Assembly (NCBI GenBank): GCA_016235155.1
Contig: JACRLW010000026.1
Location: 77,771-141,770 of the forward strand
Length of the DNA stretch: 64,000 nucleotides
Source: Planctomycetota bacterium
GTDB lineage: Bacteria; Planctomycetota; UBA1135; UBA2386
Reading direction: 5' to 3'
Shown here: piece by piece, positions 27,425 to 33,475 of the stretch
Numbering within the stretch: the first letter of the stretch is position 1
How the letters are laid out: each line of letters begins with the position of its first letter
Program-made: the position numbers and the translations under genes
Notes under the pieces: generated by a model
The model's input: the letters and a program-made list of their open reading frames with translations, nothing else
What the model was told of the DNA's origin: nothing
The model's database searches: none

Positions 27425-28687
27425 GTGTGCCCACGGACTCGCGAGACTCGAGACGACGCTGCGAGCGACGCCCATCCGCTGCGCGGCCGCGAGATCGCCG
27501 TCACCGGGCGCCTGGCGTCGATGACGCGCGCCGAGGCGATCGACGCCATCGCGCGCTGCGGCGCTACCTACACGCCGGCGCCGGATACGACGACCCACGT
27601 GCTCGTCGTCGGTCTGGAGGGCTGGCCGCTGCAACGCGACGGCCGGCCGACGCGCAGCCTCGCGCGTGCCCGTGAACTCGCCGACTCCGGTCACGCGATC
27701 CGCATCGTCGACGAGGCGGCGTTTCTCGTCGAACTCGGCCAGGACGAGCGCGCCGAGGAACTCGGCAGCCTCTACACGCTCGAGCAGCTCGCGCGCGTGC
27801 TGAAGGAACCGCTCGCGCGCCTCCGCGCGTGGATGCGGCGCGGCCTGATCACGCCGGCCCGCGTGGTCGGCCGGCTCTGCTCCTTCGACTTCGCGCAGGT
27901 CGCGAGCGCACGCGCGCTGCAACGCCTGCTCGACGGCGGCGCGAGCCTCGCCGAGATCGAACGCTCGCTGCGGATGCTCGACGGTTGGATGCCCGGCGCC
28001 TCCCGTGCCCTCGTGCAGATCGCGGCGGCGTCGCGCGGCGGCGCCTTGCTCGTGCGCCTCGACGACGGCCGGCTCGTCGAACCGAGCGGACAGATGCACT
28101 TCGCGTTCGCCGACGACGATGCGCGCGAGGTGCTCTCCCACGGCAACTTCGCGCAGCACCGCCGCCCCAAGAGCGCGGAGGAGTGGTTCGACCGCGGCGT
28201 CGCCGCCGAAGCCGAAGCGCGCTGGGAGGAAGCCGCCGACAGCTACCACCAGTCGCTGCTCTTCGGCGGTCCGCGCGCCGAGGTCGCGTTCAACCTCGGC
28301 AACGTCCTCCACGCGCTCGGCCGCGGCGGCGAGGCCGCGCAGCGCTACATGAACGCCGTCGAGATCGACGGCGGTTTCGCGGAGGCCTGGAACAACCTCG
28401 GCAACGCGCTCGCGGAGCTCGGCCGTTTCGAATCGTCGATCCGCGCCTATCGCAAGGCGCTCGCGTTGCTGCCCGACTACGCGGACGCGCACTTCAACCT
28501 CGCCGAGACGCTGCACCAGATCGAACGCTGGGACGAGGCGCGCACGCACTGGTCGCGCTACCTCGCCGGCGCGCCGCACAGCCAGGACCGCGCCTACGTG
28601 CGCTTCCGGCTCGGCGAGTGCGAGGCCGCGCTGCAACGCGCGGGTGAGCGCGACGCGGTTCCACACGACCAGGAGAACGGCGGATGA
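27425..28687 (+). CDS. BRCT, MerR-like and TPR domain protein
   Basis: This is a 420-residue cytoplasmic protein. An N-terminal BRCT domain (about residues 18-100) shows LRGREIAVTGRLASMTRAEA and TTTHVLVVGLEGWPL. A helix-turn-helix-like MerR-type segment follows (SLYTLEQLARVLKEPLARLRAW, then ITPARVVGRLCSFDF). After a middle region with an acidic patch come at least three TPR units (AEEWFDRGVAAEAEARWEEA, AEAWNNLGNALAELGRF, DYADAHFNLAETLHQIERW). GTG 27425 is used because BRCT begins just after it. The TGA overlaps the ATG of the selenoprotein gene (ATGA), so the two are translationally coupled. It is divergent from hutF, with 53 bp between starts. A regulatory role for the selenoprotein is possible but unproven. 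Confidence 0.75.
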   Translation: MCPRTRETRDDAASDAHPLRGREIAVTGRLASMTRAEAIDAIARCGATYTPAPDTTTHVLVVGLEGWPLQRDGRPTRSLARARELADSGHAIRIVDEAAFLVELGQDERAEELGSLYTLEQLARVLKEPLARLRAWMRRGLITPARVVGRLCSFDFAQVASARALQRLLDGGASLAEIERSLRMLDGWMPGASRALVQIAAASRGGALLVRLDDGRLVEPSGQMHFAFADDDAREVLSHGNFAQHRRPKSAEEWFDRGVAAEAEARWEEAADSYHQSLLFGGPRAEVAFNLGNVLHALGRGGEAAQRYMNAVEIDGGFAEAWNNLGNALAELGRFESSIRAYRKALALLPDYADAHFNLAETLHQIERWDEARTHWSRYLAGAPHSQDRAYVRFRLGECEAALQRAGERDAVPHDQENGG

Positions 28688-30786
28688 ACGCGATCGGACG
28701 ATTCGGTTCTTGGCTCACGGCGCTCGTCGCGCTCAGCAGCGTGACCGCGCAACGACCCGGCCAACCAGCGCAACCCGAAGCCTGGCGCTTCATCGCCGAG
28801 CAGCACGACCAGGATCGTGATGGCGTCGTGACCGCCGCCGAGTACGGGCGCGGCGCGGAGGCATTCGCGCGACTCGACCGCGATGGCGACGGCAGGATCA
28901 CCGCCCAGGACTTCGCGCTGCCGATGCGCCGCGCCGCCGCCGGACGCGCGCGCGGTGTCGGCACGCGCGTCGGCGATCCCGCGCCGGACTTCGATCTGCC
29001 GCGACTCGCAAGACAACAGTCCGCGGGCTCCGAGCCGGCGACGAGCGACGCGACGCTTCGCCTCTCGTCGTTCGCCGGCAAGCGCCCCGTCGCGTTGATC
29101 TTCGGCTCCTGGACTTGACCCCCGTTCCGCGCCTCGGCCGGTCGGCTGAGGGAACTGCGACTGCGCAACCTCGGGAAAGTCGAGTTCGTGCTGGTCTACA
29201 TCCGCGAAGCGCACGCGATCGACGGCGCGATGCCGAACCCGCGCGTACCCTTGGTCGAGGATCCGATCGACGACGGCGAGCGCCGCGAGGTCGCAAGCAA
29301 GTGCGTGCAGGGCCTCGGCCTCGACGAATTCACGGCGGTCGTCGACCGCATCGACGACGCGACCAACCGCGCGTACGGCGCCTGGCCCGACCGCCTCTGT
29401 CTCGTCGGCAAGGACGGCCGCATCGCGTACGCGGGACGCCCGGGACCCGCCGGCTTCGCGCCCGACGAACTCGAAGCGGCGATCGCGATCGAACTTGCGC
29501 GCGGCGAAGAAGGCGGCGGGCAAGCCGGCGAACCGAAGACCGACGACCCGGCGGCCCTGCTGCACGAACTCGTCGATCTGGCCGCGCCGAAGGAACGCGC
29601 GGCGAGGGCGAAGGAGCTCGCGGCGCTGCCGATCGATGTCGACACGTGGATCGGCGCGATGCGCGCATTCGCGCCTCTTGTCGCGGCGAGCCCCGGCCGT
29701 GCGCGCCCGACGGTGCCGCTCTGGAACGGCGAGGCGATGGAGGACACGGAGCTGTGGATCCTCGCGCCGGAGACGATCGACCCGCAGCAGCCGCTCGCGT
29801 TGATCCTGCAAGCGCACGGCACCGGCGCGTCGGGCGAGGGGCAACCGGAGATCTGGCGCGAGGTCGCGCGCGCGTGGCCGGCTGTGATCGTCGCGCCGTC
29901 GGAGTCGGGCGCGAACGACGGCTACCGCTATTCCGACCGCGAGCGCGAACTCACCCTGTCGGCGATGCGCTGGGCGCGCCGGCAATGGCGCGTCGATCCC
30001 GACCGCATCGTGCTGTCGGGCATCAGCCGCGGCGGTCACCTCACCTGGGACCTCGCCTCGCGCCGTCCGGATCGTTTCGCTGCGCTCGCGCCGATGATCG
30101 GCGGCCCGCGCCGCAATCCCGGGCAGGCGCAGAACAACCTGCGTTACGTCGAGAACCTCGCGCCGATCCCGATCCGCGATCTACAGGGCGCCCAGGACGA
30201 CCCGCGCCTCGTGGCCAACCTGCGCATCGCCTTCCAGCGATTGCGCGACGCCGGCGCGCGCGACGCGAAGCTCATCGAGTTCGAGGCGCTGGGTCACGGC
30301 TTCGAGTTCGGCGCCGTCGACTGGGTCGAGTGGTTGAGCGGCGTGCGCCGGGACCCGCGTCCCGAGCGCGTCGTGCTCCGCGCCGCGCGCGCCGGCGAGG
30401 GTCGCTCTTCCTGGTGCGAGATCCTCGCCTACGACACGAGCAAGGTCCGCGAGGAGCCGGCCTTGAGCTTCCCCGCCGCGGAATGGGAGCCGCTCGACGA
30501 GACGGCGAGGCGCGCGAAGGTCCAGCGCCTCCTCGACGACTGCACCGCGCGGCTGGATGCACGATGGGAAGCGCCGGGGCGCATCCGCATCGACACGCTG
30601 CTCGTCAAGAAGCTCCGCCTGCTCCTCGACGACGCGATGTGCGACGAGAAGGGCCAGGTCGTCGTCGTCTGGAACGGCAAGGAGTACCGCCGCACGCCGC
30701 GCCGTGATGCCCAGGTGCTGCTGGCCGAGTTCGCCGAGCGCTTCGATCCGGGCTTCCTGCCCCTGCGGTCCGTTGTGTTGCCCTGA
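28684..30786 (+). CDS. Selenoprotein: EF-hand, deiodinase-like and hydrolase domains
   Basis: The frame from ATG 28684 to the TGA ending at 30786 is continuous except for a TGA at 29116-29118. That TGA lies in FGSWT-TGA-PPFR, the deiodinase active-site motif in which selenocysteine (residue 145) is the catalytic residue, so it is read as Sec. Order: signal peptide (1-23), two EF-hands (DQDRDGVVTAAE, DRDGDGRITAQD), a thioredoxin-fold deiodinase-like domain (VALIFGSWT-Sec-PPFR, VEFVLVYIREAHAIDG, AYGAWPDRLCLVGKDGRIAY), then an alpha/beta hydrolase with nucleophile motif LSGISRGGH (Ser about 448) and GHGFEFG. Total 700 residues. A bacterial SECIS hairpin sits 14 nt after the TGA. Deiodinase-like bacterial proteins are likely redox or peroxide enzymes; iodine chemistry is not implied. 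ATG overlaps the upstream stop (ATGA). Confidence 0.85.
29132..29151 (+). promoter_or_regulatory. Bacterial SECIS element
   Basis: Starting 14 nt after the in-frame TGA (29116-29118), CCTCGGCC pairs with GGCTGAGG to give an 8-bp stem (one G-U) closed by the tetraloop GGTC. Bacterial SECIS hairpins lie just 3' of the Sec UGA inside the coding region and carry conserved G residues in the apical loop; the E. coli fdhF loop contains GGUC. Here the loop is 22-25 nt after the TGA, within the accepted spacing. SelB would bind it to insert Sec. Confidence 0.8.
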
Positions 30787-30795
30787 GGCTCTCGT

Positions 30796-32442
30796 TCAGC
30801 GCCGCGCCTCGAACTCGTCGCCCGGGGTCCAGCGCGGGGCTTCGTCGGCGTCGGCGCAGCGCAGCAGGCATTCGAGCACCAAGCGCAAGTCCATCACCGC
30901 GCCGTCGAGGTTCCAGCGCGGGTCGATCTCGTCGCTCGGTTGGTGGTAATGGACGGTCGTGTAGGAGGCCTTCAAGCGCTGGCGGCCCTCGCGGTTCTCG
31001 AGGAAGTCGCCGCCGGTCTTGAAGTAGGCGGACGGCACGCCGACCTGGGCGAAGGAGAAGTGGTCGGAGCGATAGAACAATCCGAGTTCGGGCTGCTTGT
31101 CGGCTTCGATGCGGCGGCCGCGGCGCTTCGCGACGGTCTCGGCCAATGCGGTCAGGTCGCTCTTGCCGTAGCCGATGAGTTCGAGGTCCTCGCAGGGGCC
31201 CCAGATGTTCATGCCGTCGAGGTTGAAGTTCGCGGCGATGGCCTTCTGCGGGACGGTCGGCGATTGCGCGAACCACTTCGAGCCGAGCAATCCGGACTCC
31301 TCGCCGGTGACGAAGACGACCAGCACCGAGCGGCGCGGCGCGACGTCGAGTCCGCCGAGCACGCGCGCGAGCTCGAGCGCGGCGCCGCAGCCGGACGCAT
31401 TGTCGACCGCGCCGTTGTACAGGTCGTCGCCGTTGCGCTCGCGGCCGCGGCCGAGGTGATCGAAGTGCGCGGTGACCACGACGTACTCGTCGCGCAGCTT
31501 CGCGTCGCTGCCCCGCAGCACGCCGACGACGTTGCCCGAGCGGATCTCGCGCACCGCGTTCTCCGTGGCGAGGTCCACGCTCACGCCCAGGTCGACCGGC
31601 TCGAACTCGCGGGTCTCGGCCCGCGCGCGCAGGGCATCGAGGTCGTGGCCGCCGAGTTGGGCGAGCCGCCGCGCCGCGTCCTCGCTGCACCACGACTGGA
31701 TCGCCAGCGACGGCACGCCCTCGACCGCCGGCAATGCGAAGTGCTCGCTGCCCTGGCCGGCCTGGATCACCTGGAACGGGTAACCCGCCGACGGCGTGGT
31801 GTGGATGACGATCGCACCGACCGCGCCGCGCCGCGCCGCCTCCTCGTACTTGTAGGACCAGCGGCCGTAATAGAGACGCCGCTTGCCGGCGAAGAGCTCG
31901 GGGTCGCTCTCCGGGTCGTTGTTCATCACCAGCACGACCTTGCCGCGCACGTCGGCGCCCTTCCAATCGTCCCAGCGCTGCTCCGGAGCGGTGATGCCGT
32001 ATCCGACGAACACCAATCCCGCACCCTTCCATTCCGACCGCGCCTCGGCGCGACCGGCCTGGCACGTGTAATCGTCCGGTGCGGTCAATGCGAACGCCGC
32101 GCCGTCGCCCCCGGTCGCGGTGAGCGGCACGACGACCTTCGCAGTCACGCCGGTGATCGGCACCGGCTGGTTCCAGGTCCCGTCCGCTGCGCCCGGCGCG
32201 AAGCCCGCGCTCTCGAGGCGGGTCGCGATGTAGAGCCGCGCGAGCGCGTCGCCGCGCGAGCCGGGGCTGCGTCCCTCCAGCAGGTCGTCGGCGAGGAAGC
32301 GGATCGACGCGCGGAGTCCGGCGAGCTCGATGCGGCGGTCGAGGACGTCCCAGTCGCGGTCGACGGACCCGGAGGACGGCGATTGCGCGGCGAGGGGAGC
32401 GGCGAGCGCGACGGCGAGCGCGGCGATGGGTAGGCGGATCAT
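30796..32442 (-). CDS. Secreted M28-family metallopeptidase
   Basis: The protein has 548 residues and a signal peptide ending APLAAQ. A PA domain is inserted between residues about 140-290 (GLVFVGYGITAPEQRWDDW, GKVVLVMNND, GAVGAIVIHTT). The M28 zinc residues are visible in order: VVVTAHFDHLGRG (His, Asp), YNGAVDNASGC (Asp), FVTGEESGLLGSKWF (catalytic and zinc Glu), NFNLDGMNIWG (Asp), TVHYHQPSDE (His). It is predicted to be an aminopeptidase that trims peptides in the periplasm or outside. It converges on the selenoprotein gene (9 bp gap) and diverges from the LysM gene (91 bp). The ATG at 32442 is chosen because it opens the signal peptide. Confidence 0.88.
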   Translation of the reverse strand: MIRLPIAALAVALAAPLAAQSPSSGSVDRDWDVLDRRIELAGLRASIRFLADDLLEGRSPGSRGDALARLYIATRLESAGFAPGAADGTWNQPVPITGVTAKVVVPLTATGGDGAAFALTAPDDYTCQAGRAEARSEWKGAGLVFVGYGITAPEQRWDDWKGADVRGKVVLVMNNDPESDPELFAGKRRLYYGRWSYKYEEAARRGAVGAIVIHTTPSAGYPFQVIQAGQGSEHFALPAVEGVPSLAIQSWCSEDAARRLAQLGGHDLDALRARAETREFEPVDLGVSVDLATENAVREIRSGNVVGVLRGSDAKLRDEYVVVTAHFDHLGRGRERNGDDLYNGAVDNASGCGAALELARVLGGLDVAPRRSVLVVFVTGEESGLLGSKWFAQSPTVPQKAIAANFNLDGMNIWGPCEDLELIGYGKSDLTALAETVAKRRGRRIEADKQPELGLFYRSDHFSFAQVGVPSAYFKTGGDFLENREGRQRLKASYTTVHYHQPSDEIDPRWNLDGAVMDLRLVLECLLRCADADEAPRWTPGDEFEARR

Positions 32443-32533
32443 GCGCGCATGTTCCCGTCCTCGCGCCCGCGGCGCGATGCCAGGGTCGGAACCGCGCAAG
32501 GAACACACGGTCGTGCGATCATCCGCACCCGTC

Positions 32534-33475
32534 ATGACCGCTGTCGCGCCGACCGTCCTGCTCCTCGCCCTGATCGCCGTTCCCGACATCGTCCCCGAGG
32601 GAAGCAAACTGATCCGCGCCGAGGTCCGCTTCGAACTCGGCATGCTCGCCCGGGTCGCGTGCGTCGCTCATGTCGTCGCCGAGGGCGAAACGCTCCGCTC
32701 GATCGCGACGGCGCGCCTCGGCTCCGCCGCGCGTCATGCTGAGATCGCCGCGCTCCAGCCGAGTGTCGATCCCGAGCGCCTCACGATCGGGCAGAACCTA
32801 TGGCTCCCGCCGCGCGATCCGTTGCCCAAAGACCAGGAGCCCGTCGCGGCCGAGGCCGCAGCCGATCCCGGCTGCTGGCGTCGGCGCTGCCGCGCCGACC
32901 AGAAGGCCTCGGCCGCTTTACCAGCCGGGGTCCTTCGCCTCCGAATCCTCGCGCCGCGCGAGGATTCTCCGGACTACGGACCCATGTTCGTCTACGCCGA
33001 CACGGGCCACCCCGCCGGTGTCGCCCCGGAGCCGCTGTCGGCCGACGGACTCCTGGTCTGCCAGGCCCAGTCGAATCGGCCGACGTTGTGGGTCGTCACG
33101 CGAAGCGCGCGTGAGGCGTTCGAGGCCGCGCTCGTGCAGGGACCCCTCGCGCGGCCACAGCTCGAGCCGATGCTCGCGGCGCGAACCGTGCGCGAACTCG
33201 TCGGACCGCGCGTGCAACGACTCGTGCCGCGCTCGACTCCGGTTGCGCGGCGCGAGGTCGTCCTCCGCGTCGTCGACGAATCCAAGGGACGGCTGGCGCT
33301 CGCCGTCGTCGGAAGCCGCAGCTTCGACGCCGAGAACCGTGAGATCGACGACGTCAAGGCCGAGAAGGAACGCAAGCAGGAGACCGTCTTGCTGCTGCTG
33401 CTCGGTTGCGGCGGCGCCCTCGGCCTCTGCTTCGCGGGCGCGCGCCGGCGCCACGCCGTCGTGGTCCCAGCCTGA
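32534..33475 (+). CDS. LysM-domain protein carrying a structured-repeat insertion
   Basis: The protein has 313 residues. It begins with an N-terminal hydrophobic segment (APTVLLLALIAVPDIV), then a LysM domain, residues about 43-95 (HVVAEGETLRSIATARLG, PERLTIGQNLWLPP), which binds glycan or peptidoglycan. A C-terminal helix TVLLLLLGCGGALGLCFAG (about residue 288) is followed by basic residues, so it may anchor in the membrane. Residues about 105-130 (AAADPGCWRRRCRADQ and the following A/L/P residues) are encoded by copy 1 of the 70-bp structured repeat and look like an in-frame insertion into a linker. The stop is 10 bp before qor. ATG 32534 follows the divergent M28 gene. Confidence 0.75.
   Translation: MTAVAPTVLLLALIAVPDIVPEGSKLIRAEVRFELGMLARVACVAHVVAEGETLRSIATARLGSAARHAEIAALQPSVDPERLTIGQNLWLPPRDPLPKDQEPVAAEAAADPGCWRRRCRADQKASAALPAGVLRLRILAPREDSPDYGPMFVYADTGHPAGVAPEPLSADGLLVCQAQSNRPTLWVVTRSAREAFEAALVQGPLARPQLEPMLAARTVRELVGPRVQRLVPRSTPVARREVVLRVVDESKGRLALAVVGSRSFDAENREIDDVKAEKERKQETVLLLLLGCGGALGLCFAGARRRHAVVVPA
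32846..32916 (+). repeat. Three-way-junction repeat, copy 1
   Basis: GCGGCCGAGGCC (32846-32857) pairs perfectly with GGCCTCGGCCGC (32905-32916). Inside are hairpin A (GCAGCCG, loop ATCC, CGGCTGC; 32858-32875) and hairpin B (GTCGGCGC, loop TGCC, GCGCCGAC; 32880-32899), separated by short linkers. The copy lies within the LysM protein coding sequence without breaking its frame. Confidence 0.85.

What the first reader, a model, noticed from the sequence alone, without database searches (positions are those of the whole stretch)
28684..30786. New-type selenoprotein: EF-hand + deiodinase-like Sec domain + hydrolase
The frame is continuous apart from an in-frame TGA in FGSWT-TGA-PPFR, which is the deiodinase T-Sec-PPF motif, and both flanks (VALIF..., VEFVLVYIREAHAIDG, AYGAWPDRLCLV) match that family in the same frame. 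Deiodinase-like bacterial selenoproteins are known, but a fusion to EF-hands and an alpha/beta hydrolase, coupled to a BRCT-TPR gene, is unusual. A simple frame-caller would split it into two genes.
Basis: partly seen in the sequence, partly recalled or inferred. Interest (0 to 1): 0.92.

Follow-up and report, generated by a model that had tools for sequence, protein, structure and literature searches.

The report
Secreted selenoenzyme fused to an esterase
A Planctomycetota bacterium appears to encode one long secreted protein that joins calcium-binding loops, a selenium-containing relative of the thyroid-hormone enzyme family and an esterase; the selenium part belongs to a known bacterial family, while the join to the esterase looks recent and rare.

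Summary
The frame 28684-30786 is open except for TGA at 29116-29118, and the merged protein matches T4_deiodinase, EF-hands and, below cut-off, a PHB/CE1-type esterase. The UGA is very probably read as selenocysteine. The genome has tRNA-Sec(UCA), selA, selB and a selD with its own in-frame TGA. The aligned codon is TGA in 70 of 71 class loci (the other, divergent, has Cys) and in 80 of 80 public loci, 37 of which repeat class loci. A covarying GGUC-loop hairpin sits 24 nt after the U of UGA. The domain model matches mouse Dio2/Dio3 best and keeps most of the catalytic relay; one relay His and thyronine-contact residues are lost, so thyroid-hormone deiodination is unlikely.
Novelty is smaller than claimed: bacterial deiodinase-like selenoproteins (2005) and an EF-hand fusion (2021) are in print. 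The esterase fusion is the new part, seen only in this genome in a 154-genome class search and an overlapping 392-genome phylum draw. The sister species has the three genes in the same order with the esterase separate. The BRCT-MerR-TPR coupling was seen only in the genus. Another member of the class (L110) fuses the domain to an unrelated esterase family. Substrate unknown; a secreted Sec reductase/peroxidase-type activity is most likely.

The parts
27425..28687 (+). Upstream gene: BRCT, MerR-type HTH and TPR repeats; overlaps the selenoprotein start by ATGA
   Evidence: Pfam BRCT 24.3, MerR_1 40.9, TPR_2 64.7 bits, all over cut-off; same order in sister species
28684..30786 (+). Selenoprotein gene, 700 residues with UGA read as Sec
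28684..28752 (+). Probable N-terminal signal peptide (MNAIGRFGSWLTALVALSSVTAQ)
   Evidence: read from the sequence by eye; no predictor was run; helix at residues 2-21 in the model at low confidence
28807..28842 (+). EF-hand loop 1, DQDRDGVVTAAE
   Evidence: read from the sequence; Pfam's best stretch covers loop 2 only
28876..28911 (+). EF-hand loop 2, DRDGDGRITAQD
   Evidence: Pfam EF-hand_6 and EF-hand_1 over cut-off at residues 59-78
28966..29478 (+). Deiodinase-like thioredoxin-fold domain, residues 95-265
   Evidence: Pfam PF00837 80.8 bits; PDB 9h48 and 4tr3 by sequence and fold
29116..29118 (+). In-frame TGA, selenocysteine 145
   Evidence: TGA at the aligned site in 70 of 71 class loci and 80 of 80 public loci; 112 distinct sites in all
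29132..29151 (+). bSECIS-like hairpin CCUCGGCC-GGUC-GGCUGAGG, loop 24 nt after the U of UGA
   Evidence: covariation; fold of 29131-29155 -15.3 kcal/mol, z -3.43
29302..29304 (+). Cys207, candidate resolving cysteine (inference)
   Evidence: C in 50 of 57 aligned sequences
29497..29532 (+). Fusion linker region; the sister species has a stop codon and a second leader peptide here
29551..30783 (+). PHB-depolymerase/CE1-like alpha/beta hydrolase domain; Ser448, Asp505, His538 invariant, catalytic roles inferred
   Evidence: NF050058 46.6 bits, below its cut-off of 150; conserved columns; blocks mostly above pLDDT 90; fold match 3wyd
30796..32643 (-). Convergent neighbour: M28 family peptidase, not part of the system
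   Evidence: Pfam 144.2 bits

Best explanation
The gene encodes an exported selenoprotein. SelB delivers Sec-tRNA-Sec to UGA 29116 under control of the hairpin at 29132-29151 (inferred from conservation and from the genome's Sec machinery). The product has two EF-hands, a Dio-fold thioredoxin/peroxiredoxin-like domain with catalytic Sec145, and a serine esterase (probable triad Ser448-Asp505-His538). The esterase became fused when a stretch holding the upstream stop codon and the esterase's own leader peptide was lost in frame (from comparison with the sister species; the direction of change is inferred). Most likely action (inferred): Sec145 selenolate, tuned by Ser142, Thr144, Tyr172, Glu175 and His177, reduces a small oxidised or halogenated substrate outside the cytoplasm. 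It is then recycled through a selenenylsulfide, with Cys207 as candidate partner. The esterase works on a related or co-located substrate.
For: tRNA-Sec 77.7 bits with tca anticodon; selB 327, selA 442 (two pieces together) and selD 337.5 bits, all over cut-off, selD with an in-frame TGA. Sec-site TGA in 70 of 71 class loci; the 70 come from 61 genomes, 59 with selA, and in 80 of 80 public loci, 37 of which repeat class loci. Hairpin, 70 loci: 43 both-side-changed cells against 11.6 in shuffles, 0 of 500 as high. Stems of six or more pairs at 90% of sites against 22.6% of 7776 control windows; GGT in 46 of 53 Gly codons at UGA+8 against 13% elsewhere. Dio2 and Dio3 are the best fold hits; relay residues kept. 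Sister species: separate esterase with its own leader.
Against: No protein-level evidence. Longer folds around the UGA are not better than shuffles (z -0.42, 0.03, 0.17, 1.85); the 25-base stretch with z -3.43 was cut to the hairpin. Rfam found nothing in the window. The tRNA-Sec model is over its cut-off in 5 of 14 control genomes and marginally at a second place here (47.5 against 47), so the anticodon and score carry that point. The fusion rests on one draft genome (85.5% complete, 152 contigs) and could be an assembly error, though it is in frame and cleanly placed. Substrate and redox partner are inference.
Confidence: 0.86

Rival explanations
1. The TGA is a true stop or a sequencing error, giving a truncated EF-hand protein or a mis-called Cys codon.
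For: A simple caller splits the gene in two.
Against: TGA at the same aligned site in 112 distinct loci; domain conserved on both sides; covarying hairpin; complete Sec machinery.
Confidence: 0.03
2. The deiodinase and esterase are two separate genes in the living organism; the fusion is an assembly artefact of a draft genome.
For: In the 29 other genomes whose esterase locus was fetched (L022-L050) none has the two domains in one open frame; 27 show no deiodinase match above 80 bits in the fetched flank of up to 1.5 kb, and the other two (G126, G138) have a stop between them. No other fused case.
Against: The junction is in frame, lies where the sister species has the stop and the second leader, and both flanking domains are intact.
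Confidence: 0.08
3. A true iodothyronine deiodinase acting on thyroid-hormone-like compounds.
For: Pfam family over cut-off; best fold hits are Dio2 and Dio3; six of seven relay positions kept.
Against: By the alignment, Dio3 Phe258 is Pro235 (Pro in 57 of 57), His219 is Ile195, Trp207 is Ala182 (Trp in 12 of 57), Arg275 is Pro253 (Arg in 23 of 57); the loop around His219 aligns loosely. That thyronines are not expected in bacteria is also said in PMC1088965 (passage).
Confidence: 0.05
4. Sec145 reduces hydroperoxides on or near esterified lipids or phenolics, with the esterase releasing the damaged acyl or aryl group: a repair or detoxification pair.
For: Redoxin 24.1 and AhpC-TSA 15.5 bits also hit the window domain, both below their cut-offs, and AhpC-TSA is over cut-off in seven of the eight relatives scanned; thiol peroxidase and peroxiredoxin chains appear among the fold matches; relatives fuse the domain to another esterase family and to a thioredoxin-like domain.
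Against: No substrate evidence; Dio-type T-U-PPF rather than a classical peroxiredoxin motif (recalled).
Confidence: 0.3

Closest known systems
Bacterial deiodinase-like selenoproteins (Sargasso Sea 2005, PMC1088965; GOS 2008, PMC2398784)
   Same: PF00837 domain; 2005 passages report Sec and Cys forms with bacterial SECIS elements; a 2008 table row lists the family
   Different: No fusion of this family to an esterase in the passages seen
EF-hand/deiodinase-like fusion selenoprotein (GOS 2021, PMC9402790, Fig. 2B legend)
   Same: EF-hand plus deiodinase-like selenoprotein (passages)
   Different: The window protein adds a C-terminal esterase; the words esterase and hydrolase do not occur in that paper's main text
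NCBIfam NF038285 deiodinase_rel
   Same: 161.7 bits over residues 93-271; six relatives 172-222 bits
   Different: Below the 250-bit cut-off in all 7 proteins tested
Mouse iodothyronine deiodinases Dio2 (9h48) and Dio3 (4tr3)
   Same: Fold and most of the proposed catalytic relay
   Different: Thyronine-contact residues and one relay His not kept; probable signal peptide instead of a membrane anchor; different candidate resolving Cys (inference)
LC-Est1 C-terminal esterase domain (3wyd)
   Same: Best sequence match for residues 360-521 and best fold match
   Different: Fused to a selenoprotein module here

Membership tests
Bacterial selenoprotein | Genome encodes tRNA-Sec, SelA, SelB, SelD | tested here: met
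Bacterial selenoprotein | In-frame UGA at a redox site where homologues have Sec or Cys | tested here: met
   TGA in 70 of 71 class loci, the other (L121) Cys; 80 of 80 public loci
Bacterial selenoprotein | Hairpin just downstream of UGA with G in the first loop positions | tested here: met
   longer folds not significant. The loop rule is recalled, in part confirmed by a passage of PMC1088965
Bacterial selenoprotein | Se in the purified protein | not testable with these tools
   needs 75Se or mass spectrometry
T4_deiodinase (PF00837) | Score over Pfam gathering cut-off | tested here: met
   80.8 against 27 bits
NF038285 deiodinase_rel | Score over 250 bits | tested here: not met
   161.7 bits
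Animal iodothyronine deiodinase | Relay Ser, Thr, Sec, Tyr, Glu, His and second His | tested here: not met
   six of seven kept; second His (Dio3 His219) aligns with Ile195 (roles from passages of PMC11592359)
Animal iodothyronine deiodinase | Thyronine cleft residues (Dio3 Phe258, Trp207, Arg275) | tested here: not met
   Pro235, Ala182, Pro253
PHB depolymerase/CE1-like esterase | Ser, Asp and His at triad-like positions in an alpha/beta hydrolase fold | tested here: met
   Ser448, Asp505, His538 invariant in 12 of 12; fold
PHB depolymerase (TIGR01840, NF050058) | Score over curated cut-off | tested here: not met
   35.4 of 107.85 and 46.6 of 150 bits
EF-hand protein | EF-hand profile over cut-off | tested here: met
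   EF-hand_6 28.3/25, EF-hand_1 27.8/25.4; calcium binding not tested

The most novel reading that the evidence does not exclude
The Sec-deiodinase fold is a portable extracytoplasmic reductive module that planctomycetes pair repeatedly with ester hydrolases (a CE1-like esterase here, an unrelated SASA-type esterase in L110), forming two-step enzymes that de-esterify and reductively dehalogenate natural halogenated phenolics or glycans: a bacterial dehalogenating use of the deiodinase fold from which the animal enzymes could be derived.
Probability: 0.1. Interest if true: 0.78.

Novelty: new variant of a known kind. Interest (0 to 1): 0.45.

Why it matters
It is a clean case of a selenoprotein that a plain ORF caller cuts in two, with RNA-structure evidence that the UGA is decoded. 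It shows that deiodinase-like Sec proteins are common across a planctomycete class in which selA is over cut-off in 139 of 154 genomes (52 of 53 good ones). The before-and-after pair (separate genes in the sister species, fused here) and a second fusion to a different esterase family give a testable hint at the unknown bacterial function of the deiodinase fold.

Tried and rejected
Rejected: chance open frame; true stop; thyroid-hormone substrate; 'EF-hand fusion is new' (in print); a widely conserved coupling to BRCT-MerR-TPR (seen only in the genus). Folding longer windows around the UGA gave nothing significant. An Rfam scan of the window found no family. The whole-protein model left the deiodinase half at low confidence, so that domain was modelled alone. 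Searches were translated in the wrong frame or strand and were not used. The class search covered the same 154 genomes as the order search, so it is not independent. The 46 rows of A6 were picked by hand as those with GGTC at UGA+24, which leans towards the structure; the 70-row count does not have that bias. The match list was cut, and three partial deiodinase matches in it were not fetched. The phylum search scored at most two candidates a genome.
Full report
WHAT IS THERE. The frame 28684-30786 on the + strand is 701 codons, open except for TGA at codon 145 and the final TGA. Read through, Pfam finds EF-hands, T4_deiodinase at residues 95-265 (80.8 bits, cut-off 27) and alpha/beta-hydrolase matches below cut-off; the part after the TGA alone scores 52.5 bits for T4_deiodinase and 22.9 for Peptidase_S9 (cut-off 22.6). 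NCBIfam gives deiodinase_rel 161.7 bits (cut-off 250) and a PHB-depolymerase-type esterase 46.6 bits (cut-off 150). By sequence the nearest solved structures are mouse Dio2 9h48 (6.6e-16) and Dio3 4tr3 (9.2e-16) for the Sec domain and esterase LC-Est1C 3wyd (5.2e-12) for the C-terminus.

SEC MACHINERY. The genome (G000, 5.34 Mb, 152 contigs, 85.5% complete) has a tRNA-Sec at 77.7 bits, called tRNA-SeC with anticodon tca by ARAGORN, selB 327 bits, selA 442 bits as two pieces in one frame and selD 337.5 bits with one in-frame TGA, in the stretch SCAAGUAAKLP. The tRNA-Sec family model is not fully specific: it is over cut-off in 5 of 14 control genomes and, at 47.5 against 47, at a second place here. 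selA and selD lie side by side on the window's own contig, upstream of the window. selA is over cut-off in 139 of 154 genomes of the class, 52 of 53 of the good ones; of the controls only E. coli scores.

CONSERVATION OF THE UGA. A search of the 154 genomes of the order gave matches to some part of the protein in 112. I fetched 71 loci from the deiodinase-type matches (L051-L121). With the window locus L021, and without L115, where the alignment does not reach the site, 71 loci can be read: TGA in 70, and TGC in L121, which is divergent (75.5 bits). L022 and L024 are second views of the L051 and L072 sites and were not counted. The 70 TGA loci come from 61 genomes, 59 of which have selA over cut-off; G117 and G146, both under 84% complete, do not. 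Of these 80, 37 share the 75 bases around the TGA with a class locus; both sets together give 112 distinct sites. The query carried Cys there, so ranking did not favour Sec forms. Most record titles say Planctomycetota or a group within it; others say Latescibacteria, Acidobacteria, Chloroflexi, Binatia, Deltaproteobacteria or Bacillota.

THE HAIRPIN. The 48 bases from the UGA align without gaps in the 70 loci. A stem of columns 18-24 with 29-35 around loop GGUC has 83.7% of cells paired against 74.5% in shuffles and 43 both-side-changed cells against 11.6, with 0 of 500 shuffles as high on either or on the covariation score; slid versions are all lower in cells paired and covariation. In 46 rows picked for the main register the figures are 93.2% against 84.7% and 28 against 7.7; the count of further pair types is not raised there (405 of 500 shuffles as high). 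In several rows CGG (Arg) to CAG (Gln) comes with GCC to GCT (silent), as expected if the RNA is selected. The codon at UGA+8 is GGT in 46 of 53 Gly cases against 13% of other Gly codons nearby in the same genes; stems of six or more pairs occur at 90% of sites against 22.6% of 7776 control windows, some of which overlap the hairpin itself. A minority of loci show the GGUC loop in another register, mostly at UGA+20 (15 loci). The stretch 29131-29155, cut to the hairpin, folds at -15.3 kcal/mol, z -3.43. Longer stretches are no better than shuffles (z -0.42 to 1.85).

THE FUSION. In the sister species (G126; its contig has the same length, 55140, as that of Planctomycetota bacterium SJ480) the BRCT-MerR-TPR gene, the deiodinase-like gene and the esterase gene lie in the same order, but the deiodinase frame ends with a stop and the esterase starts afresh with a leader read by eye. 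G138 also has the two enzyme genes adjacent with a stop between. In the other 27 genomes whose esterase locus was fetched there is no deiodinase match above 80 bits in the flank of up to 1.5 kb. By my listing (a cut list), 25 genomes hold both a deiodinase domain and a strong esterase match, and only G000, G126 and G138 have them on one contig (counted; contigs read). A linker of about ten residues (GEEGGGQAGE) stands where the sister has the stop and second leader. No other genome gave a match spanning residues 1-700, or both parts in one frame without a stop, among the 154 or among 392 drawn from the phylum, which overlap the 154. Other fusions exist: L110 has PDZ, Sec-deiodinase and a SASA-type esterase (65.2 bits, cut-off 24.8); L204 adds a C-terminal thioredoxin-like domain; L168 adds about 380 residues without a Pfam match.

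STRUCTURE AND CHEMISTRY. The deiodinase domain modelled alone has pLDDT 94.4 and pTM 0.90; its best Foldseek matches are Dio2 (2.3e-14) and Dio3 (5.1e-13), then DsbE, Etrx2 and ResA-type proteins. Across 57 aligned sequences Ser142, Tyr172, Glu175 and His177 are invariant and Thr144 is 56 of 57; the Sec site is invariant because every row has TGA there. These positions correspond to a proposed Dio proton relay (PMC11592359, passages; residue matching by the alignment). The second relay His and the cleft residues Phe258, Trp207 and Arg275 of Dio3 are not kept in the window protein; Trp is present in 12 of 57 and Arg in 23 of 57 at those positions. Cys207 is present in 50 of 57 and is a candidate resolving cysteine (inference). 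The esterase half is mostly above pLDDT 90, has invariant Ser448, Asp505 and His538 in 12 of 12, and is closest to LC-Est1C.

WHAT IS KNOWN. Bacterial deiodinase-like selenoproteins: PMC1088965 (passages) and PMC2398784 (a table row with 22, 12 and 21, headings not seen; passages). A deiodinase-like selenoprotein fused with EF-hands: PMC9402790 (passages). A 2026 review lists the family; the words EF-hand and planctomycet do not occur in its main text (PMC13188914, passages). Planctomycete selenoproteins: PMC4807772 (passages; deiodinase not in the main text; its candidate table is in a supplement I could not read). A search for deiodinase with fused, esterase and selenocysteine listed three papers: one is PMC2398784, whose single esterase mention concerns another family; the other two were judged by title. 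The library holds open-licence papers only.

VERDICT. A selenoprotein of a known family with a published EF-hand architecture, carrying a so far single-genome fusion to an esterase. Identity is well supported, function is inferred.

Noticed in passing
G000:C70:46724-48981 (L123, L019): selD and selA lie next to each other upstream of the window on the same contig, and SelD is itself a predicted selenoprotein (SCAAGUAAKLP); the stretch after its UGA also folds into a hairpin, not better than shuffles overall (z -0.64).
   Followed up: partly
class of the window genome (154 genomes): selA is over cut-off in 139 of 154 genomes (52 of 53 good ones): Sec decoding looks near-universal in this planctomycete class.
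   Followed up: partly
L110:313-2508: PDZ + Sec-deiodinase + SASA carbohydrate-esterase fusion, a second unrelated esterase joined to the same Sec module.
   Followed up: partly
L168:3710-6175 and L204:3662-5767: Two more long Sec-deiodinase fusions: L168 has about 380 C-terminal residues without a Pfam match; L204 has a middle region without a match and a C-terminal thioredoxin-like domain.
   Followed up: partly
window:27425-28687: BRCT-MerR-TPR protein, an odd domain mix; relatives covering nearly the whole length appear in five other family genomes, while the other 18 matches lack the BRCT part.
   Followed up: partly
L121:800-1700: Divergent Cys-form homologue (ASYTCPVFR) in a genome (G139) that also has a Sec form (L104).
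   Followed up: no
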